Source: Actinophytocola oryzae (GTDB lineage: Bacteria; Actinomycetota; Actinomycetes; Mycobacteriales; Pseudonocardiaceae). Taken from it: a DNA stretch of 64,000 nt. A model generated the notes under the pieces. It saw only the letters and a list, made by a program, of their open reading frames with translations. It was not told the origin of the DNA and searched no databases. The stretch covers positions 372,001 through 436,000 of the forward strand of contig NZ_SOCP01000007.1 in the NCBI RefSeq assembly GCF_004364325.1, written 5' to 3'. Below are positions 51,516 through 59,253 of this stretch, piece after piece. Position 1 is the first letter of the stretch, and the number at the start of each line of letters is the position of its first letter. The position numbers and the translations under genes are program-made.

Positions 51516-53333
51516 CTACCCGGACACGCGACCTGGCCGGACCGGGTACGTAGGCACGTCCGAGTAGGCGGCGGCCTGGATGAGGTACAGCTCGGCGTAG
51601 TGCTTCCCGTGGGCCATCAGGTCGTCGTGGGTGCCCTGTTCGACCACCTCGCCGTCGTGCAGCACGATGATGTGGTCCGCGTCGCGGACGGTCAGCAGGC
51701 GGTGGGAGATCAGGAGGATCGTTCTTCCCGGGTACAGCTTCCTGATGCGGGAGAACAGGTCCGCCTCGGCGCGTGCGTCGAGCGCGGCGGTGGGTTCGTC
51801 GAGTACCACGAACCGGGAGTCGCGGAAGAACGCGCGGGCCAGGGCCACCCGCTGCCACTGTCCCAGGGACAGGTCCACCCCACCCGGCAGCTCCGGGCTC
51901 AGGGTCGTTCGGTAGCCCCGCGGCAGGTTCTCGAGGACGGCGGCGGCGCCGGCCAGCTCCGCGGCGGCCGCGATCGCCGTGTCGTCGGCTCCGTCCGCGT
52001 GGCCGAGACCGATGTTGTCGGCCGCGGTCATCTTGTAGCGCTGGAAGTCCTGGAAGACGATCGCCGACGCCGTCCGCAGCCGGGCCGGGTCGGTCACCGG
52101 TTCGCCGTTCCACGACACGGTGCCCGAGTCCGGCCGGTACAGTCCAGTGAGGACTTTCGCCAGGGTGGTCTTCCCGGAGCCGTTCTCGCCCACCAGCGCG
52201 ACCACCTCGCCCGCGCGCAGCTCGACCGTCACCTCCCGCAGTGCGGGCCGGCCCGATCCCGGGTAGTGGAAGGAGATCCGGTCCGTGGACAGTGTCGTGA
52301 ACTCCTCGGGGTCCGCCGCAGGTGCGGCCGGCGGCCCGCCCGTGAAGTCACGCAGGTCGGCCACGAACAACAGGGTGCCGCCCGCGGTCTCGCTCATCCG
52401 CATCGCCATGCGCAGCTGGGTGGACAGCAGGTAGGTGGCCGCCAGGGCGGCCAGCACCGTCGGGAGGGCCAGCCACCCGCGGGAGAGCATGACCAGCAGG
52501 ACGACCACCGTGGTCGCCACGAACAGGTCGCCGAACAGACGCGCCACGAGCGCCCGCCGGGCGAAGTGGCGGACGAACACGGTCTCCTTGTCCACCGCCT
52601 CCCGGAAACGCCGCACGAGCCGGTCGCGGAGCGGCTCCGCCAGGTCGAACGCGCGCACCTCCTGTGCGGGCGCACGGCCGGTGAGCAGCCACAGGAGGTA
52701 TCGCCGCATCCGGCGGTTCTCCGCGAGCTCGGCCCGCAGCCCGAAGTTGCGCCGCTGCCGGGCCACGGCGACGCGGACCGAGGGCAGCGCGGCGAGCAGC
52801 ACCAGCGGGAAGAGCCACCAGGCGGTCAGCACGACGGCGACGGTCACCGCCACGATGCCGGTGATCGCACGCAGCACGCTCACACCGCTGGTCAGCAACG
52901 TGGTGGTGTGCTGCTCGGCGGTGCTCACCGCGCGCTCCACCCGGTCGTGGAAGTCCGGGTGCTCGTAGGCGGCCAACTCGACCGCACACGCCGCCGTGGC
53001 GACACGGTCCGTGGCGAGCGCCTCCGTCTTCAGCTTCAGCACCTGCTCCCACACACCGGTACACACCTGCGTCACGCTGCTGACCACACCGACGGCGCCG
53101 AGTACCACGAGCCCAGTCAGCGTCGCCGCGAGCCGGCCGCGGTCGTCGGACACCGCCGCGGAATGCGCCAGCACGTCCCGCAACGCAAGGAGCGCGACGC
53201 CCTGGCCGACCGCCATCACCACCTGTGTCGTCAGCAGTAGAGCGAGCCGGCGGCGGTCGGCCCGCCAGGCCAGGGCGAGCACGAACCGCACCGCCGCGGC
53301 CTTCTCGCGGAACCGGAGGGGCCGCGCCGCCAT
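51516..53333 (-). CDS. ABC exporter (fused membrane and ATPase domains), probable peptide exporter
   Basis: The protein has 605 residues from the ATG overlapping the HxlR stop. The first 330 residues are a six-helix transmembrane domain. The ATPase follows: Walker A EVVALVGENGSGKTTLAKVL, signature VDLSLGQWQRVALARAFF (LSLGQ instead of LSGGQ), Walker B RFVVLDEPTAALDA, and the switch His in ILLISHRLLTVRDADHI. There is no N-terminal C39 peptidase domain, so cargo must be cleaved by another enzyme. It is divergent from the cysteine-rich peptide operon beginning at 53981, whose S9 peptidase could supply the cleavage. Export of that peptide is the best guess. Confidence 0.88.
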   Translation of the reverse strand: MAARPLRFREKAAAVRFVLALAWRADRRRLALLLTTQVVMAVGQGVALLALRDVLAHSAAVSDDRGRLAATLTGLVVLGAVGVVSSVTQVCTGVWEQVLKLKTEALATDRVATAACAVELAAYEHPDFHDRVERAVSTAEQHTTTLLTSGVSVLRAITGIVAVTVAVVLTAWWLFPLVLLAALPSVRVAVARQRRNFGLRAELAENRRMRRYLLWLLTGRAPAQEVRAFDLAEPLRDRLVRRFREAVDKETVFVRHFARRALVARLFGDLFVATTVVVLLVMLSRGWLALPTVLAALAATYLLSTQLRMAMRMSETAGGTLLFVADLRDFTGGPPAAPAADPEEFTTLSTDRISFHYPGSGRPALREVTVELRAGEVVALVGENGSGKTTLAKVLTGLYRPDSGTVSWNGEPVTDPARLRTASAIVFQDFQRYKMTAADNIGLGHADGADDTAIAAAAELAGAAAVLENLPRGYRTTLSPELPGGVDLSLGQWQRVALARAFFRDSRFVVLDEPTAALDARAEADLFSRIRKLYPGRTILLISHRLLTVRDADHIIVLHDGEVVEQGTHDDLMAHGKHYAELYLIQAAAYSDVPTYPVRPGRVSG

Positions 53334-53686
53334 CAGCTCGCCGTCCGCGTCGGCCGCAGCGTGCTCCCCGGGTACCGCCGGTCCCTGGCCTCGGACCGGG
53401 TGCACGTCCGCCACTCGGTCGCAAGGCCCGCGACGGCGTGCAGGACGCCGCTGGCGTGCGCGGTGAGCCGGTAGTGGACGCGGAGCGGTACCGGGTGCAC
53501 CTCCCGGACCACCAGATCGGCGTCCTGCAGCCTGCGCAGCGTCTTGTCGAGAGTCTTGTGGTCGACCTTCACCGCGCGGGCCAGCTCGTTGTGCCGCCTG
53601 GTGCCGCACGCCAGTTCCTCCAGCACGGACAGCACGCCCTTGCTGGAAAGCACCTTGATCGCCTGTTCCGCCAATTCGATGTCCAT
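53333..53686 (-). CDS. HxlR/winged-helix transcriptional regulator
   Basis: I chose the ATG at 53686 after GGGGGA (117 residues). The protein is a winged helix: IKVLSSKGVLSVLEELACGT, RHNELARAVKVDHKTLDKTL (recognition helix), LQDADLVVREVHPVPLRVHY (wing) and YRLTAHASGVLHAVAGLATE. This matches the HxlR layout, although the usual N-terminal cysteine is not present. It overlaps the ABC exporter start (TGATG), so they form one unit. It probably controls itself and the divergent peptide operon through inverted repeats at 53789-53830. Confidence 0.8.
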   Translation of the reverse strand: MDIELAEQAIKVLSSKGVLSVLEELACGTRRHNELARAVKVDHKTLDKTLRRLQDADLVVREVHPVPLRVHYRLTAHASGVLHAVAGLATEWRTCTRSEARDRRYPGSTLRPTRTAS

Positions 53687-53788
53687 CGGTTCCCCCAACC
53701 TGGTTGACCTGCTGCTCGACGGAACGGCGCGACCAGGGATTTCCGCCAACTATCGCGAAACGGTCTCATGATCCCCCGACGAGTGCTG

Positions 53789-53830
53789 TTTCGAACATAC
53801 GCGAAAAGGCGAGTGACCAAAAGTTGTCAC
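53789..53830. promoter_or_regulatory. Two adjacent inverted repeats in the divergent promoter, candidate HxlR operators
   Basis: TTTCG-8-CGAAA at 53789-53806 and GTGAC-8-GTCAC at 53813-53830 have the same 5-8-5 geometry. They sit in a relatively AT-rich part of the region between the HxlR/exporter unit and the cysteine-rich peptide operon. They are reasonable binding sites for the winged-helix regulator encoded next door. Confidence 0.4.
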
Positions 53831-53980
53831 AGTGGTTGCCGCTGGTCCAGCTAGGGGAGTCGATTCCCCTTGGTGTCACCGGGAAGGGCTTGCGGCCACT
53901 GTCGAAAACGGGATTCCATTCGGGTCCCGCCGGAGAGAAAGCCAGGAGCCGGCCGGGAATACCAGGAAAGGAGAGCCGCG

Positions 53981-54178
53981 ATGACCGGTCTCGATTCGAT
54001 GTGTGCTTCCTACAGCGGGCTCGAGTTGGTGGACTACCAGATCAGCCAGGAGACGATCTGCGCGAACATCATCCTCTGCTCGGACTTCCTCTGCAACGAG
54101 GTGTGCTCGGACCTGTGTTACCCCGTCGGCGGTGGCGGCACCTGCGACGGCACGACCTGCTGCTGTGACTGTCTCTGA
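53981..54178 (+). CDS. Cysteine-rich RiPP-like precursor peptide (11 Cys in 65 residues)
   Basis: The ATG at 53981 follows AAAGGAGAG with ideal spacing and gives 65 residues. The N-terminal third (MTGLDSMCASYSGLELVDYQ) is leader-like. From about residue 25 cysteines dominate, with spacing ICANIILCSDFLCNEVCSD, then LCYPVGGGGTCDGTTCCCDC and a final Leu. It is acidic, has no Lys or Arg, and has no signal peptide. I do not recognise a named family. As the first gene of an operon with lasso-type B and C homologues, an RRE-like protein, a thioredoxin fusion, a peptidase and a divergent exporter, it is most probably the substrate: a disulfide-rich modified peptide. Confidence 0.8.
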   Translation: MTGLDSMCASYSGLELVDYQISQETICANIILCSDFLCNEVCSDLCYPVGGGGTCDGTTCCCDCL

Positions 54179-54244
54179 CCGCACGGAGGACACGGGCCGG
54201 CTCTGCCGGCACGTGTCCGCGACGGACTGGAGGAGGACGGCCCC

Positions 54245-54619
54245 ATGAACCTGTTCCGGGTGGCCGTGCTGGTGCTGCGGTGCCGGACCCGCTCGACCGA
54301 GGAACTCTTCGGGCAGGCGGCGGCCACGCCCGTGGCGCGGCGGACACCGGCACAGCCCGCCGCGACGTCGGTGCGACGGGCTCGCGCGGTGCAGCGCCTG
54401 TTGTGCGGCTTCCACAACCCGTTGCGGGAGAACGCCGTGGTCGCGCTCGCACTGCGCGCGACAGGACACCCCGCGGATCTCGTGGTCGGCTGCGAACCGG
54501 TCCCGATCTCCGGTGGCAGGCGGTTGTTCTCCTGGCTCGAGGTGGCGGGCAGGACGGAAGGAACCACCCTGCCGGCGCCCGCGTTCTACCCGGAGCTCTG
54601 GAGGTTCCCGGCATCATGA
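54245..54619 (+). CDS. Lasso-peptide B-like (transglutaminase-fold) protein with altered active site
   Basis: The ATG at 54245, eight bases after GGAGGAGG, gives 124 residues. It has the lasso B (PF13471) plan: a helix with the nucleophile-position Cys in AVQRLLCGFHNPLRENAVVA, then LRATGHPADLVVGCEPVPIS, and the strand where active enzymes have F-x-A-H-A-W-V-E-V-D-G. Here that reads RRLFSWLEVAGR, so the catalytic His is Ser and the following Asp is Ala. A normal Cys protease mechanism therefore looks lost. It might be a scaffold or leader-binding protein, or carry a different reaction. It overlaps the next gene. Confidence 0.7.
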   Translation: MNLFRVAVLVLRCRTRSTEELFGQAAATPVARRTPAQPAATSVRRARAVQRLLCGFHNPLRENAVVALALRATGHPADLVVGCEPVPISGGRRLFSWLEVAGRTEGTTLPAPAFYPELWRFPAS

Positions 54620-56154
54620 GCACCGTCGCCAACCTCGCGCCCACGACGCCCGCGTGTGAGCACGGTGGTCGTCCCACCGGCTTCTCCGCCACCTTCGACC
54701 CGACGCGACCCGCGAGCGCGGTGACCGTCGGCTACTCCTGCGGCTGCCGGCGACCCGTCGACGCGCCGGTCACGATCTCGCCCTTCCGCTCGGCGTCACC
54801 GCTCACCACGACCACGTGCGACCCGGCACGGCGCACGGTCCGCCGCGGTCCACTCGCGACGGTGCCGGTCTTCTACACCCGCACCGACAACGGCGTGGTC
54901 CACGTCGGCACCGCGTTGTCGCGCCTGCACACGGACTCGGCGGTGTCGGTCGCCGCACTCGGCGCGGCCCTGGCCGGACAGCCGCTGCCCAGCCCGCTCA
55001 CGCCGTCGACCGACGTCTTCCGCCTCGCCACGGGAGCCGCGCTGCGGTGCCTGGACAACGATCGTGGCGTGCGGCTGCACCTGGAGGAACTCGACTGGCG
55101 GGAACTGTTGCCTGCGGGCTTTCGCCGTGCCGAGCCGCGAGAGCTGCTCCGCACGGCGCTGGTCACCGCGCTGGCCGACTCGCAGGCCGACCTCGTCGCG
55201 GTCAGCGGTGGTCCCGCCTCCACCCTGCTCGCCGCGCTGGCCACGCCCCTCCCGGCCCGGCACGTCTCCGTGCGGATGCCGGTGCTCGACCGGCGAACGG
55301 TGGCGGTCGGCCGGTTCGCCGACGTCGGTCTGCCCGAGATCGACGTCGTGGACGGCACGGCGGACTGGGCGGCGGTGCGGGACGGGGACGTGCCGGTCCT
55401 GCCGGAACACTGCGACCCGTGGTTGGACCGGGTGGCCGGCGAGGCGACCGGGAGCGTGGTGAGCGGCTACGGTCTCGGGCTTCTCCTCGCCGCCGCGGGC
55501 CGTCGGGAGCGCCCCCGCCGTCGGGACCTGCTCACCGGCGAACAGGTCTCCCCGGAACTGTGGGGCAGGTCGTTCTTCCGCCGGGCACCGGCGGCCGGCG
55601 TGCACGACGTGCCACCCCACTGGTTCGGACCCGAGGCGTTGGCCGCGCTGCGCACCGCACAGGCCGCGGCGGCCACGAACCACCTCGTCCCCGAGGGGCG
55701 GGCCGACCGGTGGCTCGGACCGTTGCTGTCCCAGCTGACCGCGCTGCTGGACGGGTGCGGGCTCAGCCGGGTCGACCACACGGCCGGGGACCGTCCCGCA
55801 CCGCTGCTGCCCGGCCTGCACCCGGCGGTCGTCGGGGCGGCCCTGGCGCTCGCCGCCCGGGGCCGTTCCCTCGCACCGGTCGATCTGCTGCCGGACGGGT
55901 GGCGCCCGGCCGACCCGCCCGTCGGTGGCCGGGACCGGCTCTTCGCGGCCGCCTACGTGTCCGAGCGCCTGGCCACGGCGTCGGCGCGCGCCGACCTCCT
56001 GCGGCGGCTCGGCGACGGCGGCTGGGTACGGGCCGACCGGCTCGCCGTCGTGCTGGCGGAGCCCGGAGCGCGGCTCGCGAACAGTTGGCCGCTGCACCGC
56101 CTGCACGTGCTGGCCACGACCCATCGCGACCTCATGACGGGAGCACGATCGTGA
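54616..56154 (+). CDS. Asparagine-synthetase-like (lasso C-type) protein with degenerate PP-loop
   Basis: This 512-residue protein overlaps the B-like gene. The first 180 residues resemble the N-terminal domain of the asparagine synthetase family as found in lasso cyclases (VPVFYTRTDNGVVHVGTALS, LATGAALRCLDNDRGVRL). The synthetase part contains ADLVAVSGGPASTLLAALAT, where the ATP PP-loop should read SGGxDS; the Asp is replaced by Ala. Later segments (GSVVSGYGLGLLLAAAG, LTGEQVSPELWGRSFFRRAP) keep the family outline. Lasso C enzymes adenylate an Asp/Glu side chain to close the macrolactam. With this PP-loop, activity is doubtful or changed. Confidence 0.7.
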   Translation: MSTVANLAPTTPACEHGGRPTGFSATFDPTRPASAVTVGYSCGCRRPVDAPVTISPFRSASPLTTTTCDPARRTVRRGPLATVPVFYTRTDNGVVHVGTALSRLHTDSAVSVAALGAALAGQPLPSPLTPSTDVFRLATGAALRCLDNDRGVRLHLEELDWRELLPAGFRRAEPRELLRTALVTALADSQADLVAVSGGPASTLLAALATPLPARHVSVRMPVLDRRTVAVGRFADVGLPEIDVVDGTADWAAVRDGDVPVLPEHCDPWLDRVAGEATGSVVSGYGLGLLLAAAGRRERPRRRDLLTGEQVSPELWGRSFFRRAPAAGVHDVPPHWFGPEALAALRTAQAAAATNHLVPEGRADRWLGPLLSQLTALLDGCGLSRVDHTAGDRPAPLLPGLHPAVVGAALALAARGRSLAPVDLLPDGWRPADPPVGGRDRLFAAAYVSERLATASARADLLRRLGDGGWVRADRLAVVLAEPGARLANSWPLHRLHVLATTHRDLMTGARS

Positions 56155-56375
56155 GAGCACGGCTCAACCCCGGGTTCGCGGTGCACGCCATGCCGTTCGG
56201 TGGCGCGGTGCTGGCGGACCGGGAACGGCTGGCGGTGGTCGAGGTGGACGAGGACGTCGCCCGCGTGGTCACCGGCGGGCTCGTGGTGGATGTCGACGGG
56301 TTGCCCGAGCGGTTGCGCCCGCGTCTGGTCGCGGGGATCGCGGAAGGCTGGCTGAGTGTGGAGGAACCGGCATGA
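56151..56375 (+). CDS. Small RRE/PqqD-like protein (putative leader-binding)
   Basis: A GTG at 56151 overlapping the previous stop gives 74 residues. The pattern is short strands (NPGFAVHAMPFGGAVLAD, ERLAVVEVDEDVARVVTGG) followed by a C-terminal helix (LPERLRPRLVAGIAEGWL). This is the size and order expected of a RiPP recognition element, and lasso systems encode such a small protein beside B and C. The similarity is by pattern only; no strict motif exists. It is embedded by overlaps on both sides, so it must be co-translated with the C-like and MauE-thioredoxin proteins. Confidence 0.55.
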   Translation: MRARLNPGFAVHAMPFGGAVLADRERLAVVEVDEDVARVVTGGLVVDVDGLPERLRPRLVAGIAEGWLSVEEPA

Positions 56376-57145
56376 CTGGTGTGGTGCTGATGGGTTGGTC
56401 GCTCGCGGTAGCGGTGGTCGCGGCGAGCGTGCTGGCGAAGCTGGTCGACTGGACGGCCACCCGCGCGGCGTGGCCGGTCCGGTCCAGGAGGTGGCGATGG
56501 CTGCTGGGACCCGGGCAGGTGGTGTCCGGTGAGGTGGTGGTGGTCGCCCTGACGCTGTTGCCACTGCCCGGTCGGAGCCGCCTGCTCGTGCTGGCCGCGT
56601 TGTACGTCGGCTACGCGGTGGCCGGTCTGGTCCTCCGCGGCCGGCCGTGCGCGTGCTTCGGCACCACTCTCGCCACCCGGTTCGGGTGGCGGCACGCCGC
56701 GCTGTGCGCCGCCGTCGCGGCACTTCTCGGTGCGGGCGCCTTCGCGTCGCCGTCCACGGTGGACGCGAGTGTCGCGGCGGCCGCCGGGATCGTGGTCGGG
56801 GTGGTCGCGATGAGTGGCGTGTACCTGCGCCGCCGCGTGGCCCGGCAGCGGATCACCGACCCCGCCAAGCTCGCCCTGGTCGACCACGTCGTCGTCTACG
56901 GCTCCACCGGGTGCCCCGGTTGCCGGGGCGTGTGGGCGCAGCGTGACCAGCTCGCGGCGCTCGCGTCCTGCGACGTGGCCTTCGAGCTCGTGTCGGAGAA
57001 GGAGGCCATGGCGCGGGCCGGCGGCGCCATCCCCGCGGCCATCGGGTACGACCGCCACGGCGACCGCGTGTTCGGCCCGGCGGTCGGTCTGGCGGCCATC
57101 CGCGCGATGTTCACCGGCACCACCCGCGAGATGGCGCCTCGGTGA
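56372..57145 (+). CDS. MauE/DoxX-type membrane protein fused to a thioredoxin-like domain
   Basis: In this 257-residue protein, the first 150 residues contain four or five hydrophobic helices of the MauE type, with the paired cysteines RPCACFG between helices as in MauE/DoxX redox proteins. After a basic linker (LRRRVARQRI) comes a thioredoxin-like domain with active site VVVYGSTGCPGCRGVW and the cis-Pro region GGAIPAAIGYDRHG. This pairs a membrane quinone- or redox-linked module with a CPGC thiol oxidoreductase, suited to making or shuffling disulfides. Beside an 11-Cys peptide gene, oxidative folding of that peptide is the obvious role. Confidence 0.82.
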   Translation: MTGVVLMGWSLAVAVVAASVLAKLVDWTATRAAWPVRSRRWRWLLGPGQVVSGEVVVVALTLLPLPGRSRLLVLAALYVGYAVAGLVLRGRPCACFGTTLATRFGWRHAALCAAVAALLGAGAFASPSTVDASVAAAAGIVVGVVAMSGVYLRRRVARQRITDPAKLALVDHVVVYGSTGCPGCRGVWAQRDQLAALASCDVAFELVSEKEAMARAGGAIPAAIGYDRHGDRVFGPAVGLAAIRAMFTGTTREMAPR

Positions 57146-59058
57146 GGACACCCGAGGCGCTGCGCGGGTACGTCGAGGAGTTGCTCGGCCGGTCCGTGAC
57201 GCCCCGGGTCGACGCGTCCCCGGACGGCGTGTGGGCGTGCGTCGGACCTGAGGACGCGGAGGTAACAGCGGGAACGGTGGCCGTGCACCGCGCTGCCGCG
57301 TCGGTCGAGGATGGGTGGGTGCTGCCCGAACTCGTCCCCGGCACGGTGGCGTGGGCGCCGACCGGGGCCGTGCTCGCAGGCTACGGAGAACGCGACGGCG
57401 TCCTGGTCCCGGGTGTGGCACGCCTGGAGGAACGGTCGGTGCGGTGGTTCGACGTGCCGGCCGGTCCGCTGCCGATGGCGTGGCTCGACTGCCACCGCCT
57501 GGTCGTCCCCGTGTCCGTCACCGAACCGTCCGCGCCGCCCGTGCCCGCCGTCTTCGAGGCCGACCGCTTCTCCCGGGTGCGGGTCCTCTGCGCGGATGTG
57601 CCACCACCGCGGCGATACACTCTGTCCACACTGGACATCCGCGACGGGACCGTCGGCGCGCTCTCCCTGCCCACCGCGTCCTACCACGCGCTGCACGCCT
57701 GTCCGTGCGGCGGTCACCTCGTCGCGGGCACGGCCGACGCCGTCGTCCTGGCCGATCTCCCGGCCGGGGTCGCGCGGCCGCTCGAGCCGAACCCCGTCGG
57801 CGTCGGCTGGTTCCGCGACGGCACCACGGAGTTCCTCGTTTCTCTCCTGTCCACCCGGCACGGCACGGAGATCCGCGCCCGCACGCCGGACGGCGCCGAC
57901 CGGATCGTGGGCGTCGTCCCTGGCGCGCCGCTGTACCACTCGTTCGCGCCGCCGGCGCCACGCCTGTTGCTCGGCGACCCCGGCACCGGCACCGCGAGCC
58001 ACCTCGTCCTCATCAGCCCGGGTGCCGACGGTCCGGCCGTCCGGTCGTGGCGGATCGACGGCAGGCCGTTGACGCACGCGCGTGTCGCGGCGGTCGACGA
58101 GTCCGCGGGAGTCCTGCGTGCGGCGGTCGTCGAAACGCGGCGGACCCGGTCCCTGGTGCGGCTCCTGACCGAGGACACCCCGGGCGGGGGCGTGGTGTGG
58201 ACCGGCCGCCGGCATGCCGACGCGACCGGTCTCGGGCTGCTCGGCGTGGAAGACTGGGCCGGGGGAGCGGTCCGCCTGGCCGGTCCGGGACCGGACCCAC
58301 CGCGTCGCGTCCGGCTCCGCGACACCCGGATCGTCGGCGAACCGGACGAACTGGCGGCGCGGGTGTTGCTGCACCCGCCGGCCGACGGACAGGCGCCGGT
58401 GGCGACCGCGGTGTCGTTGCTGCCGCGGCTCGCCGGTCCGCGCTCGCGGGCACCGGGCCTGCTCACCGAACACGTGCACTGGCTGACCCGGCTGGGTTTC
58501 GCCGTTGCGGCGGTCGACGTGCCGCTGCGCTGGTGGCCGGAGGTGCCGGACGAGAGGATCCGGGCAGAAGCCGTGTCGACGATCACCGCCGCGGTCACCT
58601 CGTCCGGCCTGACGGGTCGCCTCGTCGTCCACGGCCACAGCTTCGCGGCGACGCTGGCCCTGCAGGCACTCGCGGACACGGACCTCTTCGCGGCGGCCAT
58701 GGTGTCGGGCGGCGGGTACTGCCGTTCGCTGACACCGCTCGGTTTCCAGTACGAGAAACGCGCGTTGTGGGCGGCGGAGCGGGTCTACCGGGACTTCGAC
58801 GCCGTCCTGTCCGCACCCCGCATCCGCCGCCCGGTCCTGATCGTGCACGGGCAACGGGACCGCAACCCGGCCACCCCACCCGAGGCGGCTGTCCTGTTGT
58901 TCCAGTGCCTCACAGCTCTCGGCACGCCGAGCCGCCTGGTCCTCCTCCCCGATGACGGCCACCGCGTGCGCACCCGCGGCGGGCGCGCCACGCTGCTCAG
59001 CGAACAGGCCGCGTGGATGTACCGATGGGCCACCACTACCGCCGAGGAGTCGACATGA
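57142..59058 (+). CDS. Prolyl-oligopeptidase family (S9) serine peptidase
   Basis: A GTG overlapping the previous stop gives 638 residues. Roughly 400 residues of repeated beta strands (propeller) precede an alpha/beta-hydrolase domain. Catalytic elements are Ser in VVHGHSFAATLALQAL (GxSxA rather than GxSxG), Asp in VLIVHGQRDRNPATPPEA and His in LVLLPDDGHRVRTRGG. There is no signal peptide, so it acts in the cytoplasm. S9 enzymes cut short unfolded peptides, and some mature RiPP leaders. As the B-like protein lacks its catalytic His, this peptidase is the likeliest leader protease for the cysteine-rich peptide. Confidence 0.85.
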   Translation: MRTPEALRGYVEELLGRSVTPRVDASPDGVWACVGPEDAEVTAGTVAVHRAAASVEDGWVLPELVPGTVAWAPTGAVLAGYGERDGVLVPGVARLEERSVRWFDVPAGPLPMAWLDCHRLVVPVSVTEPSAPPVPAVFEADRFSRVRVLCADVPPPRRYTLSTLDIRDGTVGALSLPTASYHALHACPCGGHLVAGTADAVVLADLPAGVARPLEPNPVGVGWFRDGTTEFLVSLLSTRHGTEIRARTPDGADRIVGVVPGAPLYHSFAPPAPRLLLGDPGTGTASHLVLISPGADGPAVRSWRIDGRPLTHARVAAVDESAGVLRAAVVETRRTRSLVRLLTEDTPGGGVVWTGRRHADATGLGLLGVEDWAGGAVRLAGPGPDPPRRVRLRDTRIVGEPDELAARVLLHPPADGQAPVATAVSLLPRLAGPRSRAPGLLTEHVHWLTRLGFAVAAVDVPLRWWPEVPDERIRAEAVSTITAAVTSSGLTGRLVVHGHSFAATLALQALADTDLFAAAMVSGGGYCRSLTPLGFQYEKRALWAAERVYRDFDAVLSAPRIRRPVLIVHGQRDRNPATPPEAAVLLFQCLTALGTPSRLVLLPDDGHRVRTRGGRATLLSEQAAWMYRWATTTAEEST

Positions 59059-59224
59059 CGGACTCCGGTGGGAAACTCGCCGCACCGGCACCACCCTCGG
59101 TGACCCGATCGAGCTGCAGGCACTGCTCGCGACCGGCGACACCGCCATCGGCGGACTGTCCGTCAAGGTCGTGCCAGCCGCGGACGGCAACGCCGAGTTC
59201 GAGGTCACCCGGGCGCCCGGCTGA
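59055..59224 (+). pseudogene. Small frameshifted reading frame at the end of the peptide operon
   Basis: An ATG overlaps the peptidase stop and begins MTDSGGKLAAP. From about 59085, coding-like third positions switch to another frame reading TGTTLGDPIELQALLATGDT, then GLSVKVVPAADGNAEFEVTR, ending in a TGA at 59222. A single-base change near 59085-59095 would join them into a protein of about 56 residues. The TGTTLGDPIELQALLATG stretch is strikingly like the beta-ketoacyl synthase motif, but what follows is not. It may be a decayed or mis-sequenced small gene of unknown function. Confidence 0.45.
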
Positions 59225-59253
59225 GCCGGCGGGCGTGATCGCTGGAGTAACGG

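What the first reader, a model, noticed from the sequence alone, without database searches (positions are those of the whole stretch)
53981..59224. Candidate new RiPP class: an 11-cysteine peptide with repurposed lasso-peptide enzymes and its own disulfide machinery
Seen: seven overlapping or closely spaced genes starting with a 65-residue, 11-Cys peptide, then lasso B-like, asparagine-synthetase-like (lasso C), a small RRE-like protein, a MauE-thioredoxin fusion and an S9 peptidase, with an exporter and HxlR regulator divergent. Known: lasso loci combine precursor, RRE, B and C, and MauE-type proteins accompany some cysteine-rich peptide loci, such as actinodefensin loci as I recall. Inference: this pathway makes a disulfide-rich peptide in which B and C homologues have been given new tasks. 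No known class I can name has this whole set.
Basis: partly seen in the sequence, partly recalled or inferred. Interest (0 to 1): 0.92.

Follow-up and report, generated by a model that had tools for sequence, protein, structure and literature searches.

The report
Defensin-type locus with disarmed lasso enzymes
An actinobacterium carries genes for a cysteine-rich, probably defensin-like peptide beside much the same helper genes that Actinomyces uses for its defensins, and two of those helpers are lasso-peptide enzymes that have lost their catalytic residues.

Summary
The genes are really there: a 65-residue, 11-Cys peptide, lasso-B-like, lasso-C-like, a small RRE-type protein, a MauE-thioredoxin fusion and an S9 peptidase, with an HxlR regulator and ABC exporter divergent. 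A seventh gene is doubtful. By gene set it is not a new class. The small protein scores 64.7 bits (cut-off 45) on NCBIfam actinodefensin-associated protein B, and four loci with that protein, from genomes inferred to be Actinomyces, hold homologues of the B-like, RRE, MauE-Trx and S9 genes. A soil actinobacterial contig (L026) has the window's order B, C, RRE, MauE-Trx with a divergent ABC gene and a clear defensin. What seems new: in 6 of 6 such loci the B-like protein lacks the catalytic Cys and His kept in 12 of 12 lasso B2 proteins, and the C-like protein lacks SGGxDS. The peptide misses the published defensin motif by one residue and has no homologue found; most, not all, tests hint at a divergent defensin. 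Verdict: a new variant of the actinodefensin kind.

The parts
53981..54178 (+). Precursor peptide, 65 aa, 11 Cys; proposed leader 1-24, core 25-65 with ten Cys
   Evidence: cleavage site inferred
54245..54619 (+). Lasso-B2-like protein without catalytic Cys and His (afnD counterpart)
54616..56154 (+). Lasso-C-like (asparagine-synthetase-like) protein with SGGPAST in place of SGGxDS; counterpart of actinodefensin-associated protein A through L026
56151..56375 (+). RRE-type protein, actinodefensin-associated protein B family (NF038044)
56372..57145 (+). MauE-thioredoxin fusion with CxCFG and CxxC
57142..59058 (+). S9 peptidase related to glutamyl endopeptidase; Ser500, Asp573, His607 kept
51516..53333 (-). 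ABC exporter, divergent; 31% identical to the divergent ABC protein of L026
53333..53686 (-). HxlR-type regulator, divergent

Best explanation
This is an actinodefensin-type locus. It makes and exports a cysteine-rich, probably defensin-like peptide. Proposed steps: the RRE-type protein binds the leader; the B-like and C-like proteins, descended from a lasso protease and cyclase but without their catalytic residues, act with it as a non-catalytic scaffold that holds the reduced precursor; the MauE-thioredoxin fusion oxidises the cysteines and passes electrons into the membrane; the divergent ABC exporter carries the peptide out; the S9 peptidase, which resembles a glutamyl endopeptidase, removes the leader after Glu24, leaving 41 residues with ten Cys (five disulfides, about 4189.8 Da). 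Shown by sequence: the gene set, its kinship with actinodefensin loci, the loss of the B and C residues, the intact redox and S9 residues. Inferred: scaffold role, place and order of oxidation, export, cleavage site, defensin fold, antibacterial use.
For: RRE-type protein over the cut-off of actinodefensin-associated protein B. Four loci (L037-L040) hold homologues: B-like E 3e-9 to 4e-6, RRE 1e-4 to 0.009, MauE-Trx 1e-11 to 1e-5, S9 9e-12 to 3e-10; in L037 the peptide and the next gene are NF038042 actinodefensin and NF038043 associated protein A. L026: RRE 63.7 bits on NF038044, C-like E 1.3e-4 on NF038043, B-like Transglut_core3 26.5 of 26 and peptide Defensin_2 24.7 of 20.4, divergent ABC gene 31% identical. 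Dead B: 6 of 6 lack Cys and His, 12 of 12 lasso B2 places keep both. Dead C: window and L026 have Ala for the Asp of SGGxDS, the 4 Actinomyces-type proteins lack the motif; 16 of 16 lasso-C frames (8 distinct genes) keep it. L026 C-like reaches the lasso-C profile at E 8.7e-14; window plus L026 against 7 lasso C, hhalign probability 93%, E 2.6e-7. Peptide: 11.9-bit domain score on an 8-defensin profile without bias correction, reached by 32 of 20,000 core shuffles and 45 of 20,000 full shuffles; single-sequence AlphaFold2 gives strand 25-29, helix 35-45, strands 52-55 and 59-63, pLDDT 74-78 over residues 31-65. Actinobacterial defensins are said to mature mostly at Glu or Asp (PMC8819291, section 9 read), which fits the S9 match.
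Against: The peptide hits no defensin or actinodefensin model and misses the published motif C-X5-12-C-X3-C-X9-10-C-X4-5-C-X-C (PMC6989792, passage), as C46-C55 spans 8. With HMMER's bias correction its best-domain score is -3.1 bits, equalled by 15,530 of 20,000 full shuffles and 20,000 of 20,000 core shuffles. Its leader is no better than shuffles on a leader profile (4144 of 20,000 as good). The core is acidic (net -5) whereas 80% of bacterial defensins are said to be positive. The window C-like protein shows no direct likeness to associated protein A (BLASTP E 2.4; hhalign probability 2%), no hit on NF038043, and only 4.3 bits on the lasso-C profile, reached by 22 of 5000 shuffles; that link rests on L026. 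No subtilisin was seen beside these genes. Scaffold role and cytosolic oxidation are untested; deletion of the thioredoxin gene sviF left sviceucin's disulfides in place (PMC9266682, passage).
Confidence: 0.6

Rival explanations
1. A new RiPP class in which B-like and C-like are active enzymes with new chemistry on the Cys-rich peptide.
For: Peptide without homologue found; gene order partly its own; B-like and C-like kept intact as genes although changed in motif.
Against: Gene set shared with actinodefensin loci, whose product actifensin showed only a loss of about 6 Da, three disulfides (PMC6989792, section 9 read); Cys, His and SGGxDS lost.
Confidence: 0.15
2. The peptide is not a defensin: the actinodefensin-type machinery matures an unrelated Cys-rich peptide, for example a metal-binding or otherwise knotted one, by the same route.
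For: Motif not met (with positions); bias-corrected score negative; acidic, CCC cluster; structure searches inconclusive.
Against: Shuffle tests without bias correction, strand-helix-strand-strand model, and defensins as the peptide in the related loci where one was seen.
Confidence: 0.3
3. A divergent class I (disulfide-bearing) lasso-peptide locus that still makes a macrolactam.
For: B, C and RRE homologues; class I lasso loci hold DoxX and thioredoxin proteins too (PMC9266682, passages).
Against: Loss of B and C residues; closest kin are actinodefensin loci.
Confidence: 0.04

Closest known systems
Actinodefensin / actifensin loci of Actinomyces (NF038042, NF038043, NF038044; afn genes of PMC6989792)
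   Same: Homologous B-like, RRE, MauE-Trx and S9 genes, an ABC exporter, and a C-like protein related through L026; the same losses of B and C residues
   Different: Peptide not recognised as actinodefensin, 11 Cys; C-like does not match NF038043 itself; B-like is second in the operon instead of after S9; ABC divergent instead of inside; no subtilisin seen beside it
L026, soil actinobacterial MAG contig JAJPIR010000116.1 with a defensin gene
   Same: Order B, C, RRE, MauE-Trx and divergent ABC gene; SGGxAST in C; Pro at the B cysteine
   Different: Defensin gene lies after MauE-Trx, not before B, and has six Cys; no S9 gene recognised in the 8 kb held
Class I lasso peptides (sviceucin type)
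   Same: B2, C and RRE proteins together with DoxX and thioredoxin proteins (PMC9266682, passages)
   Different: Lasso B2 and C proteins examined here keep Cys/His and SGGxDS; product is a threaded macrolactam

Membership tests
Actinodefensin locus | peptide matching NF038042 actinodefensin | tested here: not met
   no such hit at E<=1; the L037 peptide scores 118.1 bits
Actinodefensin locus | associated protein A (NF038043) | tested here: not met
   no hit for the C-like protein; kinship only through L026, whose protein scores 21.4 bits against a cut-off of 250
Actinodefensin locus | associated protein B (NF038044) | tested here: met
   64.7 bits, cut-off 45
Actinodefensin locus | B-like, MauE-Trx and S9 neighbours homologous to those of actinodefensin loci, and an ABC exporter | tested here: met
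   the ABC match to those loci is of a general kind
Actinodefensin locus | subtilisin-type protease | tested here: inconclusive
   none among the nine reading frames scanned at 51516-59225; the rest of the window was not searched for it
CS-alpha-beta C6 defensin | C-X5-12-C-X3-C-X9-10-C-X4-5-C-X-C | tested here: not met
   best register C33-x8-C42-x3-C46-x8-C55-x4-C60-x-C62, one residue short (positions, motif)
CS-alpha-beta C6 defensin | strand-helix-strand-strand fold with cystine-stabilised helix | tested here: inconclusive
   model has that order; no Foldseek match at E<=0.001; defensin and scorpion-toxin rows at Z 2.7-3.8 among unrelated rows up to Z 4.0
Lasso peptide | B2 protease with catalytic Cys and His | tested here: not met
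Lasso peptide | C cyclase with SGGxDS | tested here: not met
   SGGPAST
RiPP | ribosomal precursor, leader removed, residues modified | not testable with these tools
   needs mass spectrometry

The most novel reading that the evidence does not exclude
A whole lasso-peptide synthetase, protease and cyclase alike, has been disarmed and reused as a dedicated scaffold for oxidative folding of defensins inside the cell before export, and the scaffold serves peptides as different as a six-Cys defensin and an acidic ten-Cys one. Actinobacterial defensins would then be products of a former lasso pathway.
Probability: 0.35. Interest if true: 0.85.

Novelty: new variant of a known kind. Interest (0 to 1): 0.62.

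Why it matters
The actifensin paper gives no function for afnD and afnG-afnI (PMC6989792, section 9 read). Here they resolve into a former lasso protease and cyclase without their catalytic residues, an RRE-type protein and a thiol-redox fusion. That makes the question of how actinobacteria fold defensins testable gene by gene, and extends the machinery to a Cys-richer peptide in another family. If the scaffold idea holds, it is a portable folding system for disulfide-rich peptides.

Tried and rejected
New class by gene set: dropped. Direct homologues of the C-like protein P0003: none in genome contigs (exact short patterns), plasmids or PDB sequences; 1 of 120 relatives, the window itself; 3 of 390 family genomes, the window itself and two rows at E 2e-4 and 7e-4, judged chance because no other window gene lay within the 19.5 kb fetched around each. 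Peptide P0001: none in viral contigs; 3 of 100 relatives at E<=0.1, the window, a G042 row that by my reading lies antisense to another gene and a G109 row that was fetched but not examined. S9: 19 plasmid records at up to about 35% identity, none covering 80%; 1 further genome of 198 at E<=1e-20. MauE-Trx: none in plasmids; its alignment A2 found the window and one weak row, not followed, in 216 class genomes. A1 in viral contigs: none. NF038044 in 394 class genomes: 9 at E<=0.001, 1 over cut-off, the window's own; those in G284, G293 and G304 are lasso B1 proteins between C and B2; the other five were not resolved. Leader motif: a regular expression written after seeing the sequences gave 0.0002 in shuffles, a profile gave nothing; dropped. 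Defensin profile with bias correction: negative. Model of the C-like protein: useless, pLDDT 31. Searches chose comparison proteins by the motifs in question; one search repeated the count for B without that choice, and for C with a profile whose seven members had been chosen by the motif. Cytosolic placement of the thioredoxin part rests on a hydropathy and charge count of three homologues, which marked one extra segment each in window and L037. No empty site could be shown: the best same-genus homologues of one gene on each side of the locus were distant. That a structure library row was missing or weak was not used against the fold.
Full report
What is there. Six genes run from 53981 to 59058 on the + strand, with a divergent pair (HxlR, ABC exporter) at about 51516-53686. 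The five genes after the peptide overlap by 4 bases at each of their four junctions. The peptide has GGAGAG shortly before its ATG and GC3 0.88. A seventh gene ending at 59224 is not credible. The genome is 10.7 Mb in 52 contigs, rated 98.6% complete and 5.1% contaminated.

What the genes are. NCBIfam and Pfam place the RRE-like protein in actinodefensin-associated protein B (64.7 bits, cut-off 45), S9 and HxlR over their cut-offs, B-like and MauE below theirs, and the C-like protein and peptide nowhere. The nearest solved relatives of the S9 peptidase are chloroplast glutamyl endopeptidases (E 3.8e-24); Ser500, Asp573 and His607 are shared with the L037 protein (that these form the triad is recalled).

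Finding the relatives. NF038044 was sought in 394 genomes of the class (9 at E<=0.001, 1 over cut-off, the window itself), 278 of the order of G148 (3 and 1) and 161 of the family of the genome found there (4 and 4). The four loci L037-L040 were fetched. In L037 the order is actinodefensin (NF038042, 118.1 bits), associated protein A (NF038043, 676.1), associated protein B (81.9), MauE-Trx, ABC, S9, B-like, subtilisin-type. Defensin frames were seen in L037, L039 and L040, not in L038, whose contig begins at the A gene. The order fits the published actifensin locus: unknown genes afnG-I, ABC afnF, alpha/beta hydrolase afnE, unknown afnD, subtilisin-like afnC (PMC6989792, section 9 read). BLASTP of window proteins against the four loci: B-like E 3e-9 to 4e-6, RRE 1e-4 to 0.009, MauE-Trx 1e-11 to 1e-5, S9 9e-12 to 3e-10; the C-like protein had nothing better than 0.065.

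The bridge. A defensin DNA motif scanned over genome contigs matched 7 stretches; of these 7 only L026, a soil actinobacterial MAG contig, showed homologues of the window genes. On its minus strand lie B-like, C-like, RRE, MauE-Trx and a 70-residue defensin (Defensin_2 24.7 bits, cut-off 20.4), with an ABC gene divergent; that ABC protein is 31% identical to the window's over 578 columns. L026's RRE scores 63.7 bits on NF038044 and its C-like protein reaches NF038043 at E 1.3e-4, far below the cut-off. Window C-like to L026: BLASTP E 1e-7; L026 to associated protein A: E 3e-5; window straight to associated protein A: E 2.4, nothing (single comparisons). So the C-like kinship runs through L026.

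Disarmed enzymes. Twelve lasso B2 places in six genomes, found by NF033537, keep Cys and His; the six B-like proteins (window, L026, L037-L040) keep neither: Pro or Asp stands at the Cys, Phe or Leu at the His, in front of the Trp of HAW (that these columns are catalytic is recalled). The L037-L040 proteins have a His three residues after that Trp. For C, a profile of seven lasso C proteins found 16 frames (8 distinct genes by my count of overlapping loci), all with SGGxDS, and L026 at E 4.5e-11 with SGGLAST. The window has SGGPAST, the GGD motif is gone from both, and the four Actinomyces-type proteins show neither. hhalign against the seven: window plus L026 probability 93%, E 2.6e-7; associated protein A (four rows) probability 62%, E 7.5e-5; all pooled E 1.4e-9; but associated protein A against window plus L026 only probability 2%. 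The window protein alone has 4.3 bits, reached by 22 of 5000 shuffles. NF038044 also touches lasso B1 proteins lying between C and B2 in three genomes, so the RRE-type protein fits the same origin.

The redox part. MauE-Trx keeps CxCFG and CxxC in the window, L026 and L037. Hydropathy and charge suggest that both face the cytosol; this is weak. If right, disulfides form before export. Class I lasso loci have a DoxX and a thioredoxin protein too, although deletion of the thioredoxin gene left sviceucin's disulfides in place (PMC9266682, passages).

The peptide. Residues 33-64 can be laid on the defensin frame: C33-x8-C42-x3-C46-x8-C55-x4-C60-x-C62 (or C62-x-C64 at the end), with CYPVGGGGTC set against CQSVGYRGGYC of L037. 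Four patterns that I wrote after seeing the sequence occur in 2.4%, 0.47%, 0.21% and 0.02% of 200,000 core shuffles. A profile of 8 defensins gives 11.9 bits for the best domain without bias correction, reached by 32 (core), 45 (whole), 114 (Cys fixed) and 35 (only Cys moved) of 20,000 shuffles. Among 157 Cys-rich frames of the sequence then held, it came after two frames and just above one at 11.2. With bias correction the score is -3.1 and most shuffles equal it. AlphaFold2 on the single sequence gives strand, helix, strand, strand in residues 25-63, pLDDT 74-78 over 31-65, 62.7 overall; structure searches are inconclusive. The published motif is missed by one residue. I call it probably defensin-like. 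Cleavage after Glu24 is proposed because actinobacterial defensins are said to mature mostly at acidic residues (PMC8819291, section 9 read) and the S9 enzyme resembles a glutamyl endopeptidase; it leaves Cys8 in the leader and an even ten in the core (4199.85 Da reduced; minus 10.08 for five disulfides).

Literature. In the held library, actinodefensin has 0 papers; defensin with lasso peptide, asparagine synthetase and Actinomyces 0; lasso peptide with defensin, RRE and pseudoenzyme 0; bacterial defensin with biosynthetic gene cluster, disulfide and lasso 0; listings showed no title on this. 'Lasso' occurs once in the actifensin paper, about other operons, and not in PMC8819291, PMC11561630 or PMC12284004 (passages only). 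So I found no report of a lasso origin of this machinery there; preprints and most subscription journals are not held, and the notes of the NCBIfam families were not visible.

Verdict. Real, and a new variant of the actinodefensin kind with an unusual peptide. It is not filed as an actinodefensin, because the peptide and protein A models are not met. The most interesting result reaches beyond the window: lasso enzymes stripped of their catalytic residues are a shared part of the six actinobacterial loci of this kind examined here, in five of which a defensin or defensin-like peptide was seen.

Noticed in passing
window 59085-59135: In the frame of 58952-59224 the stretch GTTLGDPIELQALLATG resembles a polyketide ketosynthase motif (recalled); possibly a relic rather than a seventh gene.
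   Followed up: no
G000:C7:9281-9637 (L045, L053), G000:C19:2107-2466 (L048, L054), G000:C10:72475-72819 (L052, L055): The same genome has three further lasso B2 hits with Cys and His kept; the first two lie near a C gene with SGGMDST. The first is on the same contig, about 363 kb before the window.
   Followed up: partly
L026 1-8000 (JAJPIR010000116.1): An uncultured soil actinobacterium with a defensin gene beside the same B, C, RRE and MauE-Trx genes.
   Followed up: yes
L025 (JAQBQF010000143.1): A Myxococcales contig with a Cys-rich frame of 37.9 bits in all (best domain 14.5) on the defensin profile; no homologue of the window genes beside it.
   Followed up: partly
L040: Four defensin frames in one locus, one of them (starting MELF) with an extra Cys in the leader, as in the window peptide.
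   Followed up: no
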